Of a DNA stretch of 64,000 bases, positions 13,652-28,488 are shown in pieces. The notes below the pieces were generated by a model that saw nothing but the letters and a program-made list of their open reading frames with translations, had not been told where the DNA came from and made no database searches. Position 1 is the stretch's first letter, and each line of letters begins with the position of its first letter. Source of the DNA: Enterobacter sp. RHBSTW-00175 (GTDB lineage: Bacteria > Pseudomonadota > Gammaproteobacteria > Enterobacterales > Enterobacteriaceae); the NCBI RefSeq assembly GCF_013927005.1, contig NZ_CP055930.1, forward strand, positions 4,898,001 through 4,962,000. The letters are read 5' to 3'. The position numbers were made by a program, and so were the translations under genes.

Positions 13652-13927
13652 GTGGCTTCTGTTTCTATCAGCTGTCCCTCCTGTTCAGCTACTGACGGGG
13701 TGGTGCGTAACGGCAAAAGCACCGCCGGACATCAGCGCTATCTCTGCTCTCACTGCCGTAAAACATGGCAACTGCAGTTCACTTACACCGCTTCTCAACC
13801 CGGTACGCACCAGAAAATCATTGATATGGCCATGAATGGCGTTGGATGCCGGGCAACCGCCCGCATTATGGGCGTTGGCCTCAACACGATTTTCCGCCAT
13901 TTAAAAAACTCAGGCCGCAGTCGGTAA
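13652..13927 (+). CDS. insA: IS1 protein InsA
   Basis: 91-aa zinc-finger/HTH protein of IS1 that binds the ends and represses transposition. The GTG start and the cysteine pattern ([18 protein letters not shown]) are those of classical InsA. Near its end the A-rich heptanucleotide permits a -1 ribosomal frameshift into insB, giving the InsAB' transposase. Confidence 0.95.
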
Positions 13928-14349
13928 CCTCGCGCATACAGCCGGGCAGTGACGTCATCGTCTGCGCGGAAATGGACGAACAGTGGGGATACGTCGGGGC
14001 TAAATCGCGCCAGCGCTGGCTGTTTTACGCGTATGACAGGCTCCGGAAGACGGTTGTTGCGCACGTATTCGGTGAACGCACTATGGCGACGCTGGGGCGT
14101 CTTATGAGCCTGCTGTCACCCTTTGACGTGGTGATATGGATGACGGATGGCTGGCCGCTGTATGAATCCCGCCTGAAGGGAAAGCTGCACGTAATCAGCA
14201 AGCGATATACGCAGCGAATTGAGCGGCATAACCTGAATCTGAGGCAGCACCTGGCACGGCTGGGACGGAAGTCGCTGTCGTTCTCAAAATCGGTGGAGCT
14301 GCATGACAAAGTCATCGGGCATTATCTGAACATAAAACACTATCAATAA
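13846..14349 (+). CDS. insB: IS1 protein InsB / transposase frame
   Basis: 167-aa frame overlapping insA in -1 phase. It carries the DDE-type catalytic domain ([28 protein letters not shown], and a late [11 protein letters not shown]lu region). Functional transposase is the InsA-InsB fusion made by frameshifting. No stop or frameshift mutations seen; the element should be active. Confidence 0.93.
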
Positions 14350-16286: not shown

Positions 16287-16319
16287 TCCGGTTTTACTGG
16301 CGTGATAAAGGAGTACGCC

Positions 16320-16760
16320 ATGCACATATTCAAAGGACGCTGTTTGTGTGGGATGAGTCAGTTCAGTGTGAGTCTCACCAATTTCGACGTGTATGCCTGC
16401 CATTGTACGCTGTGCCAGAAATGGTCCGGCGGTATCGCCATGTATCTGGAAGCGCAAGGTCATCCTCTGGTCGAGGACGATTCCATCGCCCCTTCTCATT
16501 TTTCGTCCTCCCCGCGTGGTGAACGCTGGTTCTGCCCGGGTTGCGGCTGCCCACTATGGTTTGAGTTAACCTCATCAGCACGCTACTTAATTCCCTGGAC
16601 GCTGCTGGAGATGAGTGAAGACGAACGTCGTCGCCTGGTGCTGGCCGCCGAAATTTATACCGAAACCCAGCCCGCTTTCTGGGGGCTGACCGGGCAATAC
16701 GCACGCTATAGCGGGACGGAAATCGAAGCGCAGGATAAAAGCTGTCTGCTCACGCCGTAG
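16320..16760 (+). CDS. GFA/CENP-V family zinc protein
   Basis: 146-aa member of the GFA family (glutathione-dependent formaldehyde-activating enzyme fold). The zinc-binding cysteines are present: Cys8-x-Cys10, the cluster Cys27-His-Cys29-x-x-Cys32, and a later CPGCGC. True Gfa adds glutathione to formaldehyde, but most members of this family have no known reaction and genome context here does not link it to formaldehyde oxidation. Start 16320 is chosen because AAAGGAG precedes it; an ATG at 16302 is less well placed. Its 3' end overlaps the LysR gene on the other strand by 11 bp. Confidence 0.85.
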   Translation: MHIFKGRCLCGMSQFSVSLTNFDVYACHCTLCQKWSGGIAMYLEAQGHPLVEDDSIAPSHFSSSPRGERWFCPGCGCPLWFELTSSARYLIPWTLLEMSEDERRRLVLAAEIYTETQPAFWGLTGQYARYSGTEIEAQDKSCLLTP

Positions 16761-17694
16761 GCTGTTCACTGCCCGCAGCACGGCGCAGCCAGTTTTGCAG
16801 GAGCTTACCGTCCTCGGTCATTTCTGTATCTGAACGCACGCACAGGTAATAGTCGCGACCATCATCAATAGGCAAATCGAAAATTTTGACCAGTTCCCCA
16901 CTTTCAAGATACGGCGCGATAAGCGGTTCGCGCATCAGCGCACAGCCCAGCCCGGCCTGAACACCCGCCAGCGTCAGCAGGCCATCTTCAAACATCGGGC
17001 CGCTTTGTCGTGGCGGGCGCTTTACCCCTTGTAGCATAAACCACTGCTGCCAGGTACTGCGTTCCTCATCATGCAACAGCGGCATTTGCAGCAGCTGTTC
17101 CGGGGTGTCGATGTGCCCGTGAATGCGCAAAAAAGCCCGGCTGCATACCGGCACCATCTGCCCGGAAATCAGTTTTTCACTCTGATAGCCCGCCCACTGC
17201 CCATTGCCAAAACGAATCGACATATCTGAGGCATCACTCAGGTAGTTGCGGTGGTTGGCATACACCACATTGATTTCAGTCTGTGGGTTAGCCCGCATAA
17301 AAGCAGGCAGACGCGGGATAAACCAGCCCATGCCAAACAGCGGGATCAGGCTGATGGTGACCTGCCGCGTTTGTGATTGTTCTACCAGATGTTCCGTGGC
17401 CTGGCGCAGCACGTTAAATGCTGCCCGGATCGAGCGGTAGTAATCGCGCCCTTGCTGGCTCAGCACCAGCCTGCGTCCCTGACGCTCTGTAAGCGGCATT
17501 TGCAGATACCCTTCCAGTACACGGAGCTGGTGACTCACGGCGGATGGTGAAATCGCCAGCTCCTGCGCGGCCAGCGTCACGCTGCCGAGCCTGGCAATGG
17601 CTTCAAACGCGCGTACGGCCCGCAGGGGTGGATCGTTAGCAAGACGGGTTTCAGCAAAGAGAGGCTGGCCTTTCAATTGTTCTGTTTTATTCAT
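16750..17694 (-). CDS. LysR-type regulator (GcvA-like), probable regulator of the liv-type operon
   Basis: 314 aa with an N-terminal winged HTH (PPLRAVRAFEAIARLGSVTLAAQELAIS-type helix pair, about residues 22-80) and a LysR effector-binding domain of the GcvA subgroup. It is divergent from the ABC importer genes starting at 17866 with 130-170 bp between them, the classical layout for a LysR regulator and its target. I infer it responds to the imported compound or to a product such as cysteine. No clear T-N11-A box was pinned down. Confidence 0.88.
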   Translation of the reverse strand: MNKTEQLKGQPLFAETRLANDPPLRAVRAFEAIARLGSVTLAAQELAISPSAVSHQLRVLEGYLQMPLTERQGRRLVLSQQGRDYYRSIRAAFNVLRQATEHLVEQSQTRQVTISLIPLFGMGWFIPRLPAFMRANPQTEINVVYANHRNYLSDASDMSIRFGNGQWAGYQSEKLISGQMVPVCSRAFLRIHGHIDTPEQLLQMPLLHDEERSTWQQWFMLQGVKRPPRQSGPMFEDGLLTLAGVQAGLGCALMREPLIAPYLESGELVKIFDLPIDDGRDYYLCVRSDTEMTEDGKLLQNWLRRAAGSEQPTA

Positions 17695-17865
17695 ATGTTG
17701 ACTTCTTTAGACCATTTACCCGATCAGGTAAGTTTATTAAAACCATATAAATCATAAAGATAAAACGATACCGGTTTTTCATAAGAAATAATATATGCGT
17801 ATTTTACAATTTAATTCAATTATTAGATGGTAGCCGCTGAAAGAGCAATTTGTCGGGTACGAACG

Positions 17866-18816
17866 TTGGACACACTCATACAACAACTGATCAACGGTGT
17901 GATGCTGGGAAGCATCTACGCGCTGATCGCGCTGGGCTATACCATGGTGTATGGCATCTTGCGCATTATTAACTTTGCCCACGGCGATATTCTGATGGTT
18001 GGCGCGCTTACCACGCTTTCTGCCATTAATGTCCTGAATAATACCTTTCCGCATCTGCCGCTGCTGCTTCAGCTGGGCTGCGCGCTGGTGATTGCAATGG
18101 GCGTCTGCGCCCTGCTGGCAATGGCGGTTGAACGCTTTGCGTATCGCCGCCTGCGCAACGCGCCACGTCTGGCGCCGCTGATCTCCGGGATTGGCGTTTC
18201 GGTATTGCTGCAGACCGTGGCGATGATCGTCTGGACACGAAATCCGCTGATGTTCCCGCAGATCTTGCCAATGGACCCGATTGCCGTCACCGCAGGCAGT
18301 GAAGCCCACCCTCCAGCCATTGTCACCGTCACCGGTATTGTGACCGTGGTGCTGGCGCTGGTCGTCATGACCGCGCTGTGGCTGCTGGTTGAATACACCC
18401 GCCTTGGAAGAGGAATGCGTGCGGTTGCCGAAAATCCCCGTGTCGCCACGTTGATGGGCGTTAACCCTAACGCCATTATCACCCTGACCTTCGCTATCGG
18501 CGGTGTGTTTGCCGCGCTGGCGGGCGTGATGATGGCCAGCAACTACGGCAACGCCAGTTTCTCGATGGGCTTTTTACCGGGGATCAAAGCCTTCACGGCG
18601 GCTGTTCTGGGCGGTATCGGCAATATCCGTGGCGCGATGGTAGGCGGGATTTTACTCGGCATCATCGAAGCACTGGGCGCGGGCTATCTCGGTGAACTCA
18701 CCAACGGCGTATTCGGCAGTAACTACCAGGACGTGTTTGCGTTCATGGTGCTGATCCTGGTGCTGGTCTTCCGTCCGGCGGGCCTGCTCGGCGAACGTGT
18801 GGCACACAGGGCGTAA
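17866..18816 (+). CDS. LivH-type ABC permease
   Basis: Inner-membrane permease of the hydrophobic/branched-chain amino acid ABC family, about 316 aa with eight or so hydrophobic segments. The hallmark N-terminus (QQLINGVMLGSIYALIALGY) and FAHGDILMVGA are clear, as is the late GGIGNIRGAMVGGILLG motif. The start is uncertain: I prefer TTG 17866, which gives the usual LivH start (DTLIQQLING); ATG 17827 would add 13 unusual residues and has no ribosome site. First gene of a seven-gene operon running to 24315. Confidence 0.88.
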   Translation: MDTLIQQLINGVMLGSIYALIALGYTMVYGILRIINFAHGDILMVGALTTLSAINVLNNTFPHLPLLLQLGCALVIAMGVCALLAMAVERFAYRRLRNAPRLAPLISGIGVSVLLQTVAMIVWTRNPLMFPQILPMDPIAVTAGSEAHPPAIVTVTGIVTVVLALVVMTALWLLVEYTRLGRGMRAVAENPRVATLMGVNPNAIITLTFAIGGVFAALAGVMMASNYGNASFSMGFLPGIKAFTAAVLGGIGNIRGAMVGGILLGIIEALGAGYLGELTNGVFGSNYQDVFAFMVLILVLVFRPAGLLGERVAHRA

Positions 18817-18824
18817 GGAACACT

Positions 18825-19931
18825 ATGACAACCGTACAATTACAGACTCCTGTCGCCCCCCGTAAATTCTGGTCAGGAATGACCCTGTTTTGCCTCGCCC
18901 TGTTGCTTGCACCTATTATTGCCAGCCAGCTTGGCGGCAACTACTGGGTGCGGGTAATCGACTTTGCTCTGCTCTACATCATGCTGGCGCTGGGACTGAA
19001 CATCGTGGTCGGCTACACCGGGCTGCTGGATATGGGCTTTATCGCCTTTTACGCCGTGGGGGCTTATCTGGCCGCCCTGCTGGCCTCACCGCATCTGCTT
19101 GAGGTTTTCCCAATCCTCGCCGTGTGGTTCCCCGACGGACTGCATACATCCTATCTGCTGATTATTCCGGTCGCGGCCCTCGTCGCCGCGGTGTGCGGCA
19201 TCGTGCTCGGCGCACCGACGCTTAAGCTGCGCGGGGATTATCTGGCGATCGTAACGCTGGGCTTTGGCGAGATTATCCGCATCCTGATGCGTAACCTCGA
19301 CCGCCCGGTCAATATCACCAACGGCGCGAAAGGCATTACCGGCGTGGATACGCTGAACCTTTTCGGCCTGAAGTTCAGCGGTGTGTACCACTGGTTCGGC
19401 GTTAAAGTACCTGCGCTCTGGCTGTGGTACTACCTGCTGATGCTGGTAATTGTGGCGATCATTTTTGTCTGCGTGCGCCTGCAACACTCACGTATTGGCC
19501 GCGCCTGGCACGCCATCCGTGAAGATGAAGACGTGGCCCGCGCGATGGGGATCAACGTGCGCAACTATAAACTGCTGGCCTTTGCCATGGGCGCCTCTTT
19601 TGGCGGCGTGGCGGGCGCGCTGTTTGGTGCGTTTCAGGGCTTTGTCTCGCCAGAATCCTTCACGTTGCAGGAGTCTATCGCCGTACTGGCGATGGTGGTG
19701 CTGGGCGGTATGGGGCACATCCCCGGCGTTATCCTCGGCGCTGTGCTACTGACCGCACTACCGGAGCTGTTGCGCAGCCAGGCTGCCCCTGTACAGCAGG
19801 CGTTGTTCGGAACGGTGCTGATTGACCCGGAAATTCTCCGTCAGCTGTTTTACGGCCTGGCGCTGGTGCTGGTGATGCTCCTTCGTCCATCCGGGATCTG
19901 GCCGGTGCGTCACAAGGAGGTAAAAGCATGA
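18825..19931 (+). CDS. LivM-type ABC permease
   Basis: Second permease subunit, 368 aa, with the LivM signature (LGLNIVVGYTGLLDMGFIAFYAVGAY) and the cytoplasmic coupling segment RIGRAWHAIREDEDVARAMGIN. A long hydrophilic stretch between helices (about 155-190, GVDTLNLFGLKFSGVYHW) is normal for LivM. It begins 8 bp after LivH with AAGGA ahead and overlaps the next gene by 4 bp. Confidence 0.92.
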   Translation: MTTVQLQTPVAPRKFWSGMTLFCLALLLAPIIASQLGGNYWVRVIDFALLYIMLALGLNIVVGYTGLLDMGFIAFYAVGAYLAALLASPHLLEVFPILAVWFPDGLHTSYLLIIPVAALVAAVCGIVLGAPTLKLRGDYLAIVTLGFGEIIRILMRNLDRPVNITNGAKGITGVDTLNLFGLKFSGVYHWFGVKVPALWLWYYLLMLVIVAIIFVCVRLQHSRIGRAWHAIREDEDVARAMGINVRNYKLLAFAMGASFGGVAGALFGAFQGFVSPESFTLQESIAVLAMVVLGGMGHIPGVILGAVLLTALPELLRSQAAPVQQALFGTVLIDPEILRQLFYGLALVLVMLLRPSGIWPVRHKEVKA

Positions 19932-20695
19932 GTCTGCTCACCGTTCGCAACATGTCCAAACGCTTCGGCGGCCTGACCGCCGTGGACGATGTTTCACTCT
20001 CAATCAACAAGGGTGAAATCTACGGCCTGATTGGCCCTAACGGCGCGGGTAAAACCACCTGTTTTAACCTGATAACCGGGTTATACCCGGCCGACAGCGG
20101 CGAATTTCTGATTGCCGATAAACCCTATTACCCGAAGCAGATTGAGAAAGTCACTGCTGCCGGGATCGCGCGCACCTTCCAGAACGTGCGCCTGTTTAAC
20201 CAGATGTCGGTGCTGGAAAACGTGATGGTCGGCCGCCATGTACGCACCCGCAACGGGCTGTGGGCTGCACTCAGTCGCCACAAGCGCGCACGGGCGGAAG
20301 AAACCGACACCCGCGAACAAGCCTGGCACTGGCTGGAATATACCGGCATTGCAAAATTCGCCCACTACCGCGCCTGCGATCTGGCTTACGGCCACCAGCG
20401 TCGGCTGGAGATTGCCCGCGCGCTGGCAACCGATCCGCTGCTACTGGCGCTCGACGAACCGGCCGCCGGTATGAACGCGGCAGAGAAAGTGGCACTCGGC
20501 GAACTGCTTACCCGCATTCGTGACGACGGTAAAACCCTGCTGATGATCGAACATGACGTCAAGCTGGTGATGGGCATCTGCGACCGTCTGACGGTTCTTG
20601 ATTATGGCAAAACGCTCGCCAGCGGCACGCCGGACAGCGTACGCCGCGACCCGGCCGTGATTGCCGCCTGGTTAGGAGGCAATGCGCATGTCTGA
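19928..20695 (+). CDS. LivG-type ABC ATPase
   Basis: 255-aa ATPase of the branched-chain-type importer. Walker A is GPNGAGKTT (about 36-44), followed by the LivG-specific insertion with GIARTFQNVRLF, a signature region in which LAYGHQRRLEIARAL replaces LSGGQ as usual for LivG, Walker B LLALDEPAAGMN and the H-loop IEHDVKLVM. All catalytic residues look intact. ATGA overlaps on the 5' side. Confidence 0.93.
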   Translation: MSLLTVRNMSKRFGGLTAVDDVSLSINKGEIYGLIGPNGAGKTTCFNLITGLYPADSGEFLIADKPYYPKQIEKVTAAGIARTFQNVRLFNQMSVLENVMVGRHVRTRNGLWAALSRHKRARAEETDTREQAWHWLEYTGIAKFAHYRACDLAYGHQRRLEIARALATDPLLLALDEPAAGMNAAEKVALGELLTRIRDDGKTLLMIEHDVKLVMGICDRLTVLDYGKTLASGTPDSVRRDPAVIAAWLGGNAHV

Positions 20696-21407
20696 GTTAT
20701 TAAAGGTTGAGCGTCTTGACGTGCATTACGGCGGCATTCAGGCCGTGCGCGATGTCTCCTTTACCCTGCATGAAGGCGAACAAGCAACGCTGATCGGCGC
20801 CAACGGCGCAGGGAAAAGCTCCACCGTGCGGGCCATTACCGGGCTGGAAAGTTTCACCGGCAGCATCACCTTCAGCGGCAAAAATGTGCGTAAACACAAG
20901 CCGGAAGCCCTGCTGCGTGACGGGCTGGTGATGGTGCCCGAAGGTCGTGGCATCTTTGCCCGCATGACGGTACTGGAAAACTTGCAGATGGGAGCCTGGC
21001 TAAGACGTGACGCCGTCACAGTAAAACATGAAATGAATGCGATATTTGAACGCTTCCCGCGCCTCGGCGAGCGCCAGCACCAGCTGGCGGGGCTTCTTTC
21101 CGGCGGTGAACAACAGCTGCTGGCGCTTAACCGCGCTCTACTAAGCCGCCCGCGTTTGCTGATCCTCGATGAACCGTCGATGGGGCTGGCACCGAAAATG
21201 GTAGAGAACATTTTTGCCGTCATTTCCGGGCTGCGTGAACGCGGCGTGGCCCTGCTGCTGATTGAACAAAACGCGCGCCTGGCACTGGAAGTGACCGACA
21301 ACGCGTGGGTGATGGACAGCGGCAGCATCGTTCATCACGGCGCGTCGAAAGCCATGCTGGACGACGACCAGATAGCACAGATTTATTTGGGCGAAATGCC
21401 CCTTTAA
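20688..21407 (+). CDS. LivF-type ABC ATPase
   Basis: 239-aa second ATPase. Walker A GANGAGKSS, the LivF-type MVPEGRGIFARMTVLENL block, signature LSGGEQQLLALNRALL and Walker B LLILDEPSMGLAP are present. Start 20688 is preferred because AGGAGG at 20673-20678 is too close to the ATG at 20682 but well spaced for 20688; it overlaps the end of LivG by 8 bp. Confidence 0.93.
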   Translation: MSELLKVERLDVHYGGIQAVRDVSFTLHEGEQATLIGANGAGKSSTVRAITGLESFTGSITFSGKNVRKHKPEALLRDGLVMVPEGRGIFARMTVLENLQMGAWLRRDAVTVKHEMNAIFERFPRLGERQHQLAGLLSGGEQQLLALNRALLSRPRLLILDEPSMGLAPKMVENIFAVISGLRERGVALLLIEQNARLALEVTDNAWVMDSGSIVHHGASKAMLDDDQIAQIYLGEMPL

Positions 21408-21434
21408 CCACACCAACCAACATCAGGGAAAACA

Positions 21435-22592
21435 ATGAAAACAGTAAAAATCAGTGCGCTCAGCGCCGCCATTCTGCTCAGTGGTTTTGCCTCAACGGGC
21501 GCATGGTCAGCAGATAGCGAAACCGTTGTTATCGGCCTGGCGGGCCCGTTAACCGGCCCGTCTGCCCGTATCGGTAAGGATCTGGAAAATGGCGCTCAAC
21601 TGGCCATCGACGATATCAACAAACAGCATCCGACCATCGGCGGCAAAGCCGTTACCTTCAAACTGCAATCCGAAGACGATCAGTCTGACCCACGCACCGC
21701 TGTAGCGGTTGCGCAGCGTCTGGTCGACAGCGGCGTGGCTGGTGTGGTGGGCCACTGGAACACCGGCACCAGTATTCCGGCCGCGCGCGTGTATCACGAT
21801 GCCGGTATCGCTCAGGTTGCCCCTGTCGCCACCGGTCACGCCTATACCAAACAGGGCTTCGACACCAGCTTCCGCGTGATGGGCCATGACGATGACGGTG
21901 GCCAGTTTGCCGGGCAGTACGCGGTAAACACCCTGAAAGCAAAACGCATTGCGGTGATCGACGACCGTACCGCATTTGGTCAGGGTCTGGCCGACGAATT
22001 TATCAAATCGCTGGAAGCCCAGGGCGTGAAGATTGTTGACCGCCAGTACGTTGATGACAAAACCGTGGATTTCAGCGCCGTTCTGACGGCCATCCGCAGC
22101 AAAAATGCTGACCTGATCTTCTTCGGCGGCGTAGACAGCCAGGCCGCACCGCTGGCGCGCCGTATCAAACAGCTCGGCATGAACGCCACACTGATGGGCG
22201 CAGGCGGATTCGTCAGCCAGACCTTCCTGCAACTGGCGCAGAAAGAAGGCGAAGGTGTTGTGGCGCTGGAGCCAGGTCTGCCGGTTGATCAGATGCCGGG
22301 CGGTAAAGCCTTCGAGCAGGCGTATCAGTCCCGTTATCACACCCATATCGAATTACACGCGCCGTTCGCCTATGACGCCACCCGTGTACTGGTTGCCGCG
22401 ATGGAAAAAGCCAACTCCGTTGACCCGTCTGAATACCTGCCCGCCCTGCGCGCCATTAACTACTCTGGCGTCACCGGACAGATTGCGTTTGATAAAGAAG
22501 GCAACCTGAAAGCGCCGTCCTTCACCGTGTACAAAGTGGTGGATGGCAAATGGCAGCCGCAGACCATACTGGGCGGCACCAAAGCGAAGTAA
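21435..22592 (+). CDS. Liv-type periplasmic binding protein
   Basis: 385 aa with a cleavable signal peptide (to about SWS-A, residue 26) and a type I periplasmic binding fold of the Leu/Ile/Val class (Peripla_BP_6): VVIGLAGPLTGPSARIGKDLENGAQLAIDDIN, then VAGVVGHWNTGTSIPAARVYHDAGI. It delivers the ligand to the permeases. Unlike in the classical E. coli liv cluster, the binding protein is last in the transporter set and is followed directly by two catabolic genes, which suggests the ligand is not simply leucine. GGGAAAA ribosome site is weak. Confidence 0.9.
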   Translation: MKTVKISALSAAILLSGFASTGAWSADSETVVIGLAGPLTGPSARIGKDLENGAQLAIDDINKQHPTIGGKAVTFKLQSEDDQSDPRTAVAVAQRLVDSGVAGVVGHWNTGTSIPAARVYHDAGIAQVAPVATGHAYTKQGFDTSFRVMGHDDDGGQFAGQYAVNTLKAKRIAVIDDRTAFGQGLADEFIKSLEAQGVKIVDRQYVDDKTVDFSAVLTAIRSKNADLIFFGGVDSQAAPLARRIKQLGMNATLMGAGGFVSQTFLQLAQKEGEGVVALEPGLPVDQMPGGKAFEQAYQSRYHTHIELHAPFAYDATRVLVAAMEKANSVDPSEYLPALRAINYSGVTGQIAFDKEGNLKAPSFTVYKVVDGKWQPQTILGGTKAK

Positions 22593-22609
22593 CGCAGTGA
22601 GGCAATGTG

Positions 22610-23092
22610 ATGAGTGATAATAATGAGCTGGGCATTCTCGCCCGCCGCAAAATTGAAGCAGAAATTATTAAGCCAATTTATGAAATCCTGGTGCGCGAGA
22701 TAGGGAAAACCCGCGCCCAGGCGGTGATTGGCGAGGCCATTGAACAGGCCGCTATCGATGCGGGCAAAGAATTTGCCAGCAAAGAGCCCAACGGCGCGGA
22801 TGTGAAGAGCTTTATCGCCCTGCAATATCTGTGGGAGAAAGACAACGCACTGGACGTCAAAGTGATCGACGCCGACGAGCAGCAGTACAACTACAACGTG
22901 ACCCGCTGCCGCTACGCCGAGATGTATCACGAGATGGGGCTTGGCGAAATCGGGCATCTGCTCTCCTGCGCCCGCGATGAAAAATTCATTGTCGGTTATG
23001 CACCGGATGTGGAGCTGACCCGCACATCCACCATCATGCAGGGTGGTTCATGCTGCGACTTCCGCTATCGCAGCACAAAGGACAAAGCATGA
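22610..23092 (+). CDS. L-2-amino-thiazoline-4-carboxylate hydrolase family protein
   Basis: 160-aa cytoplasmic protein resembling the ATC hydrolase family (AtcB of Pseudomonas), which opens L-2-amino-delta2-thiazoline-4-carboxylate to N-carbamoyl-L-cysteine. Seen: the N-terminal LGILARRKIEAEIIKPIYE helix, a CRYAEMYHEMGLGEIGHLLSC segment (Cys100 and Cys120) and a terminal GGSCCDFRY motif (Cys148, Cys149). No membrane or signal sequence. A GTG at 22607 is an alternative start one codon upstream. Its stop overlaps the start of the amidohydrolase gene (ATGA), so the two enzymes are translationally coupled, exactly what a two-step conversion would need. Family call from pattern memory; a search should confirm it. 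Confidence 0.75.
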   Translation: MSDNNELGILARRKIEAEIIKPIYEILVREIGKTRAQAVIGEAIEQAAIDAGKEFASKEPNGADVKSFIALQYLWEKDNALDVKVIDADEQQYNYNVTRCRYAEMYHEMGLGEIGHLLSCARDEKFIVGYAPDVELTRTSTIMQGGSCCDFRYRSTKDKA

Positions 23093-24315
23093 TGCGCGTA
23101 AACGCACAGCGCCTGTGGGCTACGCTGGAAATGATGGCACAAATCGGCGGCACGCCCGCCGGTGGCGTTACCCGTCTGGCGTTAAGCGAAGAAGACCGGA
23201 TAGCACGCAACCTGCTGCGCGACTGGGCGCTTGACGCCGGTTTTACCTGTGATGTGGACAGCATGGGCAACATGTTTATCCGCCGCGCCGGGAAAAACCG
23301 GGCTCTGGCTCCGGTGATGACCGGATCGCACGTTGATTCCCAGCCGCTTGGCGGAAACTACGACGGGATTTACGGCGTGATGGCCGGGCTTGAGCTGCTG
23401 CGTACCCTGAACGATAACCAGCTGGAAACCGAGCGCGATATCGTGCTGGTAAACTGGACCAACGAAGAAGGCGCGCGCTTTGCTCCGGCGATGCTCTCTT
23501 CCGGGGTCTGGACCGGGCAGTTTAGCGAAGCCTATGCCCACGCCCGGGCCGATAACGCGGGGATCACCGTTGGTGAAGCGCTTGACGCTATCGGCTATCG
23601 CGGTGAACAACCGGCACAGGCATTTCCGGTTCACGCCTGTTACGAACTGCACATCGAACAGGGGCCGATTCTGGAAGATGAAGCCATTGATATCGGGCTG
23701 GTGCGGGCCGCAATGGGCCAGCGCTGGTTTACGATAACCCTTGACGGCTTTGCCGCTCATGCGGGTACGACCCCAATGCACAGCCGACGCGATGCATTAA
23801 CCGCCTTTGCCGAACTGGCATTAAAGGTGGAAGAGATTGGCTATCAGCATCAGCCGGATGGCCGTGCCACTATCGGCATGGCGCAGGTCACGCCGAACTC
23901 GCGCAACGTGGTGCCGTCTCGCGTGGTGTGCAGTGTGGAGTTTCGCCACCCGGCGCAGGATGCGCTTGAAGCGATGGAGTCGGCACTGCATCAGGCGGCG
24001 GAATCACTCGCTGCACGCGGCGTCACCGCCATTGTTGAGCGCATTTTTGACTACGCGCCGATCGCATTTAACCCGCAGTGTCTGGCCCGTACCGAGCAGG
24101 CCGTGGCGGCACTGGGTTATTCATCAAAACCGATGGTATCCGGCGCGGGGCATGACACCTGTTATGTCAGCAAAATTGCCCCGGCGAGTATGATTTTCAT
24201 TCCGTGCGTGAAAGGCATCAGCCATAACGAAGCAGAAAAGATCCTGCCGGAATGGTCAGAGAAAGGGGCGAATGTGCTGCTGCACAGCGTGCTGGCGGCG
24301 GCTCAGGAGCAATAA
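23089..24315 (+). CDS. M20 N-carbamoyl-L-amino acid amidohydrolase (carbamoylase)
   Basis: Metallo-amidohydrolase of the M20 beta-ureidopropionase/allantoate amidohydrolase/hydantoinase-carbamoylase group, 408 aa. Metal ligands are visible: His81 and Asp83 (GSHVDSQP), Asp92 (NYDGIYG), Glu126/Glu127 (WTNEEGARF), His188 (ELHIEQGP) and a late His in KGISHNEAE; His224 (GFAAHAGTTPM) is the oxyanion-hole histidine. It removes a carbamoyl group, giving CO2, NH3 and an amino acid. Coupled to the ATC-hydrolase-like gene, its natural substrate is probably N-carbamoyl-L-cysteine (AtcC role). A frame extension upstream to 23050 overlaps the previous gene and is rejected. Confidence 0.87.
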   Translation: MMRVNAQRLWATLEMMAQIGGTPAGGVTRLALSEEDRIARNLLRDWALDAGFTCDVDSMGNMFIRRAGKNRALAPVMTGSHVDSQPLGGNYDGIYGVMAGLELLRTLNDNQLETERDIVLVNWTNEEGARFAPAMLSSGVWTGQFSEAYAHARADNAGITVGEALDAIGYRGEQPAQAFPVHACYELHIEQGPILEDEAIDIGLVRAAMGQRWFTITLDGFAAHAGTTPMHSRRDALTAFAELALKVEEIGYQHQPDGRATIGMAQVTPNSRNVVPSRVVCSVEFRHPAQDALEAMESALHQAAESLAARGVTAIVERIFDYAPIAFNPQCLARTEQAVAALGYSSKPMVSGAGHDTCYVSKIAPASMIFIPCVKGISHNEAEKILPEWSEKGANVLLHSVLAAAQEQ

Positions 24316-26308: not shown

Positions 26309-27796
26309 CTAGCTTTGATTCACCTTTGAGAGGCTGAACCAGATCCCGATGGCAAGCAGCAGCAACATGCCGCCAGCACTGCCCAGCGCCACGCTGTGTG
26401 ACGTAATAAACGCCGTTTTCGCCGCGGTGATCACGGAATCTCCCAGCGCTGGCGTCAACTCCTGGGCGACTTTCACCGCTTCACCAATTGACGATGAGGC
26501 TTTGTCGGTCAGCGCCGGGGTTAACCCTTCCGGCAGAGTTATCGATGCCGAAAAACTGCGGGTTAACAGCAGGCCAAAAATGGCAATCCCCAGCCCGGCC
26601 CCCAGTTCATAGGACATGGTTTCGATGGCCCCTGCGGCAGCGGCTTTCTCTTTCGGCGCGGCAGCCATAATGGCGGACGTAGACGCCAGCAGCGCGCTGG
26701 CGGCGCTAAACCCCAGCAACACCATCAGGCTCCACGCTTGCCACTGCTGGGTACTGAAATCAAGCAACGACAGGCCAATAAAACTTATCGCGCTCAGCCC
26801 CATGCCCCCAGCGGCCACAATCCGCAGCCCCAGACGCCCGACCAGCACCCCGGCAACAGGGCCGCTGAACCCGCTGGCAACCATCAGCGGCAGCATAAAC
26901 ATCCCGGCCTCAAATGGCGTAAAACCGTGAACGAACTGGAGCTCCTGGGCCATCAGCAACTCGAATCCCACCAGCGCAATCATAGCAGTCATTGCCATCA
27001 CCACACCGCTTAAGATGATGCGATGGCAGAACAAGCGCATGTCAATCATCGGTACACGGGCGCGCAACTGAATGCGCACAAAAACAAACAACATCACCGC
27101 GCCGGTAAGCAGCGTACACGCCACCATCCACGGGGCAAGCGCGCCTTTCAGCGCAGTTTTGGCGCTATACACCAGCAGTAAGATGGCGACAATCAACATG
27201 ATGGCATGGCTGATATTCAGCGGCTGCTCCGGTCGCCCTTGTTGTGCCGGGACAAATCGCGCCGCCAGTGAAACCACCACCACCACGATCGGTACGTTGA
27301 TCAAAAAGACCGAGCCCCAGTAAAAATGCTCAAGCAGCATCCCGCCAATAAGCGGCCCAAACGCGGCACCGCCTGAACCGACGGCGGCCCATACCCCCAG
27401 CGCGATATTGCGATGCCGGGCATCGATAAACAGCGTGCGGATCCCGGCAAGCGTGGCCGGAATGATCATCGCCGCCCCAATCGCCAGAGAAGCCCGCGCG
27501 GCAATCAGCCAGCCCGCAGAGGGCGCAAACGCCGCAGCCAGCGACGAGAGGCCAAACAGCGTACTGCCGATCATCAGCAGGCGCTTAAAGCCGATGCGGT
27601 CACCCAGTGCGCCCATCGGCAGCACCATCCCCGCCATCACCAGCGAGTAAATATCAATAATCCACAGCAATTCATTGCCGCTTGCGCCAAGCGTCATGCT
27701 CAATGTCGGTGCCGCCACGTGCAGCACCGTTGCGTCAATCGCCACCGGAATATAGACCAGCACGATAATCACTAACGCTAACCACTGACGAAACAT
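26309..27796 (-). CDS. smvA: SmvA, MFS efflux pump for cationic biocides and dyes
   Basis: DHA2-type, 14-helix proton antiporter, 495 aa, near-collinear with Salmonella SmvA (methyl viologen, acriflavine, quaternary ammonium and, in Klebsiella, chlorhexidine efflux). Hallmarks: VYIPVAIDATVLHVAAPTL in helix 1 with the membrane-embedded Asp, LPMGALGDRIGFKRLL (motif A) and GPLIGGMLLEHFYWGSVFLIN (motif C-like). I start at MFRQW (27796); the ATG at 27811 is also possible, and the longer frame to 28084 runs back through smvR and is rejected. Divergent from smvR, with two operator-like palindromes between. Confidence 0.95.
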   Translation of the reverse strand: MFRQWLALVIIVLVYIPVAIDATVLHVAAPTLSMTLGASGNELLWIIDIYSLVMAGMVLPMGALGDRIGFKRLLMIGSTLFGLSSLAAAFAPSAGWLIAARASLAIGAAMIIPATLAGIRTLFIDARHRNIALGVWAAVGSGGAAFGPLIGGMLLEHFYWGSVFLINVPIVVVVVSLAARFVPAQQGRPEQPLNISHAIMLIVAILLLVYSAKTALKGALAPWMVACTLLTGAVMLFVFVRIQLRARVPMIDMRLFCHRIILSGVVMAMTAMIALVGFELLMAQELQFVHGFTPFEAGMFMLPLMVASGFSGPVAGVLVGRLGLRIVAAGGMGLSAISFIGLSLLDFSTQQWQAWSLMVLLGFSAASALLASTSAIMAAAPKEKAAAAGAIETMSYELGAGLGIAIFGLLLTRSFSASITLPEGLTPALTDKASSSIGEAVKVAQELTPALGDSVITAAKTAFITSHSVALGSAGGMLLLLAIGIWFSLSKVNQS

Positions 27797-27818
27797 AAAT
27801 GTCCTTTTCATTTTAAAC

Positions 27819-27834
27819 CTGGACACATGTCCAG
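27819..27834. promoter_or_regulatory. SmvR operator candidate 1
   Basis: Palindrome CTGGACACATGTCCAG (7-bp arms CTGGACA/TGTCCAG around CA) 22 bp upstream of the smvA start. The same 16-bp pattern recurs 35 bp away. This is typical of a TetR-family operator in a divergent promoter. Confidence 0.75.
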
Positions 27835-27853
27835 AATGCGATCCTACGTAAAG

Positions 27854-27869
27854 TTGAACGCATGTCCAG
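27854..27869. promoter_or_regulatory. SmvR operator candidate 2
   Basis: TTGAACGCATGTCCAG matches candidate 1 at 13 of 16 positions with one perfect half-site (ATGTCCAG) and one degenerate half. It lies 43 bp from the smvR start, and could mediate autoregulation or cooperative binding. Confidence 0.6.
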
Positions 27870-27912
27870 CTCTTTGTTACACTCGTTTCATCCCCATTAA
27901 GAGTGAGTAAAA

Positions 27913-28488
27913 ATGCGTTATCTGAGCAAGGACGAACGGCGGGAAGATATTCTTCAGGCGGCAATGCGCGTGGCGCTAGCCGAAGGGCTGTCCGCGATGA
28001 CGGTAAGGCGCATCGCCGCCGAAGCGGGCGTTGCCACCGGGCAGGTTCACCACCATTTTGCCTCTGGCGGCGAATTAAAATCATTAGCCTTTGTCCGGCT
28101 TATCCGCGCCTTGCTGGATGCCGATGTGGTCGCTGAAAACGCCAGCTGGCGGGAGCGCCTGCACGGGATGCTGGGCAGCGATGACGGCGGATTTGAACCC
28201 TACATCAGGCTATGGCGGGAAGCGCAAATCCTCGCAAGCCGTGACCCGGAAATCAAAAGTGCGTACATCATGACGATGGAAATGTGGCACCAGGAAACGA
28301 TGGCCATTATCCGGGGCGGCGCGGAATCAAAAGAATTTACCCTGACAGATCGGGCAGAAAATATTGCCTGGCGTTTGATTGGGCTGGTCTGCGGCCTGGA
28401 CGGTATATACGTTTTAAATATGCCTGAAATGGACAATGCCGCATTTAATAAACATCTTGATAAATTAATCACTCTGGAATTGTTTTAA
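27913..28488 (+). CDS. smvR: SmvR, TetR-family repressor of smvA
   Basis: 191-aa TetR regulator. The N-terminal HTH is clear (ILQAAMRVALAEGLSAMTVRRIAAEAGVATGQVHHHF, residues 14-50, in segments), with a helical ligand-binding domain after it. Position divergent to smvA and sequence fit SmvR, which represses smvA and is inactivated in chlorhexidine- or octenidine-adapted Klebsiella. The reading frame is intact here, so efflux should be under control. A terminator follows at 28540. Confidence 0.92.
   Translation: MRYLSKDERREDILQAAMRVALAEGLSAMTVRRIAAEAGVATGQVHHHFASGGELKSLAFVRLIRALLDADVVAENASWRERLHGMLGSDDGGFEPYIRLWREAQILASRDPEIKSAYIMTMEMWHQETMAIIRGGAESKEFTLTDRAENIAWRLIGLVCGLDGIYVLNMPEMDNAAFNKHLDKLITLELF

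What the first reader, a model, noticed from the sequence alone, without database searches (positions are those of the whole stretch)
17866..24315. Liv-type importer operon ending in a likely aminothiazoline-carboxylate to L-cysteine pathway
Seen: permeases, ATPases and binding protein followed by an ATC-hydrolase-like gene and an M20 carbamoylase with ATGA overlap, opposite a LysR regulator. Known: in Pseudomonas ATC is opened to N-carbamoyl-L-cysteine and decarbamoylated to L-cysteine. Inference: this is an uptake-plus-conversion system for ATC or another carbamoyl/thiazoline sulphur compound in an enterobacterium, with the LysR as sensor. A dedicated importer for ATC is, to my knowledge, not well described.
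Basis: partly seen in the sequence, partly recalled or inferred. Interest (0 to 1): 0.78.

Follow-up and report, generated by a model that had tools for sequence, protein, structure and literature searches.

The report
Importer operon for aminothiazoline-to-cysteine salvage
An Enterobacter gene cluster looks built to import a small sulphur ring compound (probably the one that forms when cyanide meets cystine) and cut it open to release the amino acid cysteine; the two cutting enzymes are of a known kind, while the dedicated importer is new to us and still unproven.

Summary
In detail: a divergent LysR gene, five Liv-like importer genes, an ATC_hydrolase (PF14196) gene and an M20 carbamoylase gene overlapping by ATGA. 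It is a conserved unit: 70 of 80 named relatives carry all eight genes, 80 of 80 the enzyme pair. The 160-aa protein passes the Pfam cut-off and the M20 keeps the four ligand residues named for a solved relative. In 5 of 21 loci with more distant hydrolases a CdsH/Cds1-type L-cysteine desulfhydrase lies in the cluster, which points to cysteine as product; none of the 80 close loci shows this. The binding protein has an invariant Gly where LivK has Glu226, so an ordinary alpha-amino acid is an unlikely ligand. Substrate and transport are not shown; Burkholderiaceae clusters lack permeases and some Pseudomonas clusters lack the importer. Best reading, about 0.7: uptake and conversion of L-2-aminothiazoline-4-carboxylate (the cyanide-cystine adduct) to cysteine. 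The atcB/atcC chemistry is known; the importer coupling, a candidate ATC racemase and an oxidase/aminoacylase variant are new leads.

The parts
16750..17694 (-). LysR-type regulator (GcvA-like), divergent
   Evidence: HTH_1 and LysR_substrate; GcvA subfamily 253.9 bits, below its cut-off of 288; a homologue of 50% or more identity lies in 76 of 80 named loci (L078 is cut short upstream)
17781..17818 (.). Conserved intergenic block, possible operator/promoter of the operon (function inferred)
   Evidence: consensus of 54 aligned intergenic regions, the window and loci numbered up to L055
17866..18816 (+). LivH-like permease (TTG start; the ORF tool starts at 17827)
   Evidence: BPD_transp_2 2.9e-48; LivH model 230.5 bits, cut-off 379; start codon
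18825..19931 (+). LivM-like permease
   Evidence: BPD_transp_2 5.7e-51; LivM model 265.7 bits, cut-off 366
19928..20695 (+). LivG-like ATPase
   Evidence: ABC_tran and BCA_ABC_TP_C; LivG 279.3 bits, cut-off 362
20682..21407 (+). LivF-like ATPase
   Evidence: ABC_tran; LivF 225.8 bits, cut-off 441
21435..22592 (+). HAAT-type periplasmic binding protein; T110, T133 and G257 at the places of LivK S79, T102 and E226
   Evidence: Peripla_BP_6 1.1e-60; alignments with 3ip5, 3ipc, 4n0q and 1usg; column counts
22610..23092 (+). L-2-amino-thiazoline-4-carboxylate hydrolase family protein (AtcB-like), 160 aa
   Evidence: PF14196 146.3 bits, cut-off 28.1; AlphaFold2 model pLDDT 92.0, fold comparison
23089..24315 (+). 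M20 hydantoinase/carbamoylase-family amidohydrolase (AtcC-like), 408 aa, ATGA overlap with the gene before
   Evidence: TIGR01879 388 bits, cut-off 204; ligand residues E126, Q191, R286, H379

Best explanation
The operon is an uptake-plus-conversion system for L-2-aminothiazoline-4-carboxylic acid (ATC; tautomer ITCA), the ring compound that forms when cyanide reacts with cystine. The HAAT importer brings ATC in (inferred). The PF14196 protein hydrolyses the thiazoline ring to N-carbamoyl-L-cysteine (inferred from the family; published for a Pseudomonas enzyme). The M20 enzyme removes the carbamoyl group to give L-cysteine, ammonia and CO2 (inferred from family and residues; published for a Pseudomonas enzyme). 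The LysR protein probably senses substrate or intermediate and controls the operon (inferred). Cysteine then feeds sulphur metabolism, or is broken down by the CdsH/Cds1-like desulfhydrase encoded elsewhere in the same genome.
For: Family match of the 160-aa protein. TIGR01879 match of the M20, with the four ligand residues named for RrCbetaAA (Glu131, Gln196, Arg291, His385; PMC10952681, passages) present as E126, Q191, R286, H379 and invariant in 115 of 115 orthologues, 107 distinct. Pair in 80 of 80 and whole operon in 70 of 80 named loci. Of 21 fetched loci with more distant hydrolases, five carry a Cds1/CdsH-type L-cysteine desulfhydrase: Pseudomonas L140, Shinella L148 and L153, Agrobacterium L150, Azospirillum L154. 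The four scored give 532.5-569.3 bits for NF052478 (cut-off 600; cysteine-synthase models at most 153.4, and in L140 diaminopropionate ammonia-lyase 29.4). A Rid protein is in L140 and L154. The binding protein has G257 in 109 of 109 orthologues (101 distinct) where the four shown solved chains, three different proteins, have Glu or Asp. A fused importer of another type lies directly upstream of the pair in L068, L079 and L081, and a second HAAT importer lies among ATC hydrolases in Azospirillum. Cyanide and cystine give ATC/ITCA (PMC9291117, passages).
Against: No biochemistry for any of these proteins. The review seen describes an S-carbamoyl as well as an N-carbamoyl route from ATC (PMC10821248, passages). 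21 of 21 Burkholderiaceae loci have the binding protein but no permease or ATPase beside it; L046, L058, L059, L071, L074 and L131 lack the HAAT importer. The desulfhydrase clusters are distant (hydrolase 46-54% identical); in L154 the gene touches a PF14196 copy of only 14% identity and the closer copy lies about 5 kb away. None of the 80 named loci has such a desulfhydrase nearby (only a 25% hit in L058). Of the 21 distant loci 10 show no M20 of either type beside the hydrolase. In Enterobacteriaceae the desulfhydrase is common anyway (9 of 9 with ATC hydrolase, 94 of 189 without).
Confidence: 0.7

Rival explanations
1. Same chemistry, other ring: the natural substrate is another 2-amino (amidine) heterocycle, such as an iminoimidazolidine- or aminooxazoline-carboxylate, giving N-carbamoyl-diaminopropionate or N-carbamoyl-serine rather than carbamoyl-cysteine.
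For: PF14196 is broad, with members of 14-16% identity in other contexts. A xanthine-dehydrogenase-type cluster sits beside the pair in S. meliloti. None of the 80 close loci carries a Cds1-like cysteine desulfhydrase beside the pair.
Against: Desulfhydrase neighbours in distant clusters score 532-569 bits for Cds1, against 29 for diaminopropionate ammonia-lyase in L140. An importer downstream in L095 has a binding protein whose best model is the cystine one (221.8 bits, cut-off 312).
Confidence: 0.18
2. The Liv genes are an ordinary branched-chain or small amino-acid importer and the two enzymes are passengers.
For: Best solved relatives are amino-acid binders: the 3ip5 protein and LivK/LivJ.
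Against: All five scores fall below the Liv cut-offs; no acid at the place of LivK E226 in 109 of 109; the whole block keeps together, also on two plasmids.
Confidence: 0.07
3. The importer takes up N-carbamoyl amino acids or hydantoins in general and the PF14196 protein acts on those.
For: The M20 belongs to a family with wide carbamoylase specificity (breadth seen for one member in PMC10952681, passages); HyuA/HyuB-like genes lie downstream in Pantoea L146 and L077.
Against: No hydantoinase gene in the window operon; PF14196 accompanies the M20 in all 80 named loci, though these were found by the PF14196 protein.
Confidence: 0.05

Closest known systems
atcB/atcC of Pseudomonas sp. BS and ON-4a (L-ATC hydrolase and N-carbamoyl-L-cysteine amidohydrolase)
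   Same: Same two enzyme families and similar sizes (18.0 and 44.1 kDa here; 19.5 and 44.7 kDa recalled for strain BS)
   Different: Here with a divergent LysR and five importer genes; whether the published clones had such neighbours could not be checked (papers not held)
LivKHMGF / HAAT branched-chain amino-acid importer
   Same: Five-gene architecture and families
   Different: Gly at the place of LivK Glu226, Val/Leu/Ile at Tyr202, invariant Asp234; below all Liv cut-offs
Ergothioneine catabolism ErtE (N-carbamyl-L-glutamate amidohydrolase)
   Same: M20 carbamoylase family; acting after ring opening is recalled
   Different: 330.9 bits, below the cut-off of 520
CyuPA of E. coli (importer plus desulfidase for cysteine)
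   Same: Importer joined to a cysteine enzyme (PMC9040844, start of abstract in the search listing only)
   Different: Substrate there is cysteine itself; the families differ (recalled)

Membership tests
ATC hydrolase (PF14196, AtcB-like) | Matches the curated profile over its whole length | tested here: met
   146.3 bits against 28.1, profile 1-145 of 145
ATC hydrolase (PF14196, AtcB-like) | Three conserved cysteines of the family (PMC5847659, passage) | tested here: met
   C100, C120, C149 invariant in 23 aligned sequences, with G32, E104 and T141; that these are the paper's three is inferred
ATC hydrolase (PF14196, AtcB-like) | Opens L-ATC to N-carbamoyl-L-cysteine | not testable with these tools
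   needs an enzyme assay
ATC hydrolase (PF14196, AtcB-like) | Close sequence relation to the tested Pseudomonas AtcB | not tested
   no entry named for strain BS, ON-4a or TS1138 among the 120 listed in each; papers not held
ATC hydrolase (PF14196, AtcB-like) | V4R/H-NOX-type fold | tested here: inconclusive
M20 N-carbamoyl-L-amino acid hydrolase (AtcC-like) | TIGR01879 hydantoinase/carbamoylase profile | tested here: met
   388 bits against 204
M20 N-carbamoyl-L-amino acid hydrolase (AtcC-like) | Ligand residues Glu131, Gln196, Arg291, His385 of RrCbetaAA | tested here: met
   E126, Q191, R286, H379; 115 of 115 orthologues; positions in chain 8c46 were shifted by 6 to fit the paper's numbers
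M20 N-carbamoyl-L-amino acid hydrolase (AtcC-like) | Activity on N-carbamoyl-L-cysteine | not testable with these tools
   needs an enzyme assay
Liv branched-chain amino-acid importer | Liv equivalog/subfamily cut-offs | tested here: not met
   LivH 230.5/379, LivM 265.7/366, LivG 279.3/362, LivF 225.8/441, binding protein 224.3/477 bits
Liv branched-chain amino-acid importer | Acidic residue at LivK 226 (binding role recalled) | tested here: not met
   G257 in the window and in 109 of 109 orthologues
HAAT (Liv-like) ABC importer, wide sense | Two BPD_transp_2 permeases, two ATPases, Peripla_BP_6 binding protein | tested here: met

The most novel reading that the evidence does not exclude
PF14196 is a general thiazoline-4-carboxylate ring-opening family at the heart of modular cysteine-salvage clusters. 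Where the C2 group is amino (the cyanide adduct ATC) its partner is an M20 carbamoylase; where cysteine was trapped by an aldehyde (thiazolidine-4-carboxylates) an L-pipecolate-oxidase-like flavoenzyme first makes the thiazoline and an M20 aminoacylase finishes the job; a CdsH-like desulfhydrase plus Rid then burn the cysteine, and importers of several types plus an EutA/AMDase-like protein (candidate ATC racemase) are bolted on. The window operon is the enterobacterial, LysR-controlled version for the cyanide adduct.
Probability: 0.3. Interest if true: 0.75.

Novelty: new variant of a known kind. Interest (0 to 1): 0.5.

Why it matters
ATC/ITCA forms when cyanide meets cystine, is found in human and animal blood and tissue, and is used as a cyanide-exposure marker (PMC9291117, passages and cited titles). 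A conserved bacterial import-and-conversion system would give this compound a biological fate, and would give cysteine-production work a transporter and perhaps the racemase gene. It also gives the small PF14196 family, for which no solved relative was found by sequence, a wider chemical hypothesis that simple assays can test.

Tried and rejected
Co-occurrence of the CdsH/Cds1-like gene with ATC hydrolase in Enterobacteriaceae: 9 of 9 against 94 of 189 (Fisher p 0.0023, taking the two samples of 198 to be the same). Dropped as evidence: 14 of the 20 negatives listed are genomes of 2 Mb or less, and the gene is common in the rest.

The published AtcB among database names: three protein searches (one listed each of 3671, 7986 and 3499) showed no entry named for strain BS, ON-4a or TS1138. 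Size hints (recalled 19.5 kDa for AtcB of strain BS; 18.0 kDa here, 19.3 kDa for L140) leave open that the tested enzyme is nearer to the L140 lineage.

Literature: none of the papers listed by searches had a title or abstract start on an ATC importer or a gene for ATC racemase; one search found no paper, and 11, 12 and 92 were capped (30 of 4,802, 40 of 979, 8 of 14,107). The library is open-licence only, so this is no proof of absence. One search for LivK residues found nothing of use, so the binding roles of LivK S79, T102, Y202 and E226 are recalled. Of listings 71 and 91 only PMC7767077 was opened (passages).

MetNIQ-like genes downstream in L068, L078 and L081 (names partly recalled) and the HyuAB genes of Pantoea were considered as part of the system and left as loose neighbours. 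A megablast search of E. coli genomes with the operon found no match.
Full report
What is there. The window (probably an Enterobacter: the nearest named relative is Enterobacter soli, hydrolase 99% identical) holds a divergent LysR gene and a seven-gene block in one direction: two BPD_transp_2 permeases, two ABC ATPases, a Peripla_BP_6 binding protein, a PF14196 protein and an M20 carbamoylase. The last two genes share ATGA at 23089-23092.

It is a real unit. A scan of species genomes for the 160-aa protein gave 96 relatives, of which the best 80 were kept. In 80 of 80 an M20 homologue is present and in 70 of 80 all eight genes are, in the same order in the listing. The ten exceptions are informative. 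L046, L058, L059, L071 (a 4-kb contig) and L074 lack the HAAT importer; L068, L079 and L081 (Neisseriaceae and Orbaceae) have a fused importer protein directly upstream (L078 is cut there); L080 has the binding protein only. Pfam finds SBP_bac_3, BPD_transp_1 and ABC_tran in the fused proteins of L068 and L081. In 21 of 21 Burkholderiaceae loci from the genome searches the genes are LysR, binding protein, hydrolase and M20 with no permease or ATPase beside them (L124 repeats L080). Matches at E 1e-8 or better are patchy, the window's own genome counted in the first three and the centre genomes in the last two: 13 of 398 genomes across the phylum, 9 of 198 in the family, 3 of 369 in a class sample, 21 of 180 in the family of G324, 18 of 179 in the genus of G344. 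All eight genes also lie together on plasmids of Kosakonia cowanii and Pantoea dispersa. A megablast search of complete E. coli genomes found no match.

The M20. It is a hydantoinase/carbamoylase-family amidohydrolase (TIGR01879 388 bits, cut-off 204); ErtE (330.9, cut-off 520) and AllC (235.5, cut-off 597.75) are not reached. The ligand residues described for the Rhizobium enzyme (PMC10952681, passages) map to E126, Q191, R286 and H379, each invariant in 115 of 115 orthologues (107 distinct).

The importer. All five parts resemble Liv but fall below each Liv cut-off. In the binding protein, hydroxyls line up with LivK S79 and T102 (T110 and T133), while the place of LivK E226, which binds the alpha-ammonium group (recalled), is Gly in 109 of 109 orthologues (101 distinct), against Glu or Asp in the four solved chains shown. 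Y202 becomes Val, Leu or Ile, and Asp234 is invariant. The two Azospirillum binding proteins near ATC hydrolases also lack the acid (Ser). This fits a ligand with a carboxylate but no free alpha-ammonium group, as in ATC. It is an inference from alignment, not a binding test.

The product. The best clue comes from more distant clusters. Of the 21 loci fetched with distant hydrolases (L098-L104, L140-L145, L147-L154), five carry a PLP enzyme like L-cysteine desulfhydrase Cds1: Pseudomonas L140, Shinella L148 and L153, Agrobacterium L150 and Azospirillum L154. The four scored reach 532.5-569.3 bits, just under the cut-off of 600, far above cysteine synthases; L153 is 99% identical to L148. In L140 and L154 a Rid protein is there too. 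In four loci the gene follows the M20; in L154 it touches a very divergent PF14196 copy and lies about 5 kb from the nearer one. None of the 80 close loci has it nearby. The window's own genome has one such gene elsewhere (C1:3278723-3279754), next to a gene that I read by eye as an Lrp-type regulator, an arrangement I recall for Salmonella cdsH-ybaO; CdsH makes pyruvate, sulphide and ammonia from cysteine (PMC7767077, passages). Five loci from four genera are few, so this is support, not proof.

Partners outside the clade. Of those 21 loci, six show a carbamoylase-type M20 (L140, L143 in part, L144, L148, L149, L153), five an M20 aminoacylase (L145, L150, L151, L152, L154) and ten neither.

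Why ATC. Ring opening by this family followed by a carbamoylase implies a C2-amino ring; the product clue implies sulphur in the ring; and ATC/ITCA forms from cyanide and cystine (PMC9291117, passages). Conversion of ATC to cysteine by Pseudomonas is described with two routes, through N-carbamoyl- or S-carbamoyl-cysteine (PMC10821248, passages); the M20 family here favours the N-carbamoyl one. Shiba 2002 on atcB and atcC is recalled, not held.

New leads. (a) An EutA/AMDase-like protein of the Asp/Glu racemase superfamily (EutA model 177-200 bits in the three scored, cut-off 318) lies beside the pair in Pantoea coffeiphila L046 and S. meliloti L143, close by in Pseudomonas L140, and a 50% identical one about 6 kb away in L051; another Asp/Glu racemase-family gene lies beside the hydrolase in L098. 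ATC racemase is a known activity (PMC10821248, passage), so these are candidates. (b) In L145, L150, L151, L152 and L154 the hydrolase keeps company with an M20 aminoacylase and a flavoenzyme like L-pipecolate oxidase (248 bits in L150 and 302 in L154, cut-off 600; the others 43-46% identical to that of L154), which suggests thiazolidine-4-carboxylates as substrates. (c) A tree of 55 hydrolases puts the window in a clade of 34 rows (support 100/98) of Enterobacterales, Pseudomonas, Burkholderiales, Orbaceae and Neisseriaceae, all with the carbamoylase; deeper rows are on long branches and are not firmly placed.

Verdict. The gene observation is confirmed. The ATC-to-cysteine reading is the best explanation at about 0.7. 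The enzyme chemistry is known; the importer with its altered pocket, the regulator and the modular relatives are what is new. No step is shown by experiment here.

Noticed in passing
L046:10895-11662, L140:10608-11396, L143:8094-8921, L051:16882-17694: EutA/AMDase-like protein of the Asp/Glu racemase superfamily beside or near ATC hydrolase-M20 pairs: candidate ATC racemase.
   Followed up: partly
L145, L150, L151, L152, L154: ATC hydrolase with M20 aminoacylase and L-pipecolate-oxidase-like flavoenzyme, in L150 and L154 also with a CdsH/Cds1-like desulfhydrase: possible thiazolidine-4-carboxylate pathway.
   Followed up: partly
L095, L096, L106-L124: Burkholderiaceae keep a HAAT binding protein in the cluster with no permease or ATPase beside it, 21 of 21.
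   Followed up: partly
L068:6511-8955, L081:6565-8946: Single-chain ABC importer: solute-binding, permease and ATPase domains in one protein of about 800 aa.
   Followed up: no
L143:2580-9486: S. meliloti pSymA: xanthine-dehydrogenase-family subunits and a MoaD/ThiS-family gene upstream of a racemase-family gene and ATC hydrolase.
   Followed up: no
window 16302-16760: Small protein with a GFA-like start (recalled resemblance; no NCBIfam match at 1e-15) between an OmpC-type porin and the LysR gene.
   Followed up: no
window 13652-14349: Two overlapping reading frames that look like an IS1 element (recalled) between a PPK2 gene and the porin gene.
   Followed up: no
window 26309-28488: SmvA-family efflux transporter gene with a divergent TetR-family gene, beside a Kup-like gene.
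   Followed up: no
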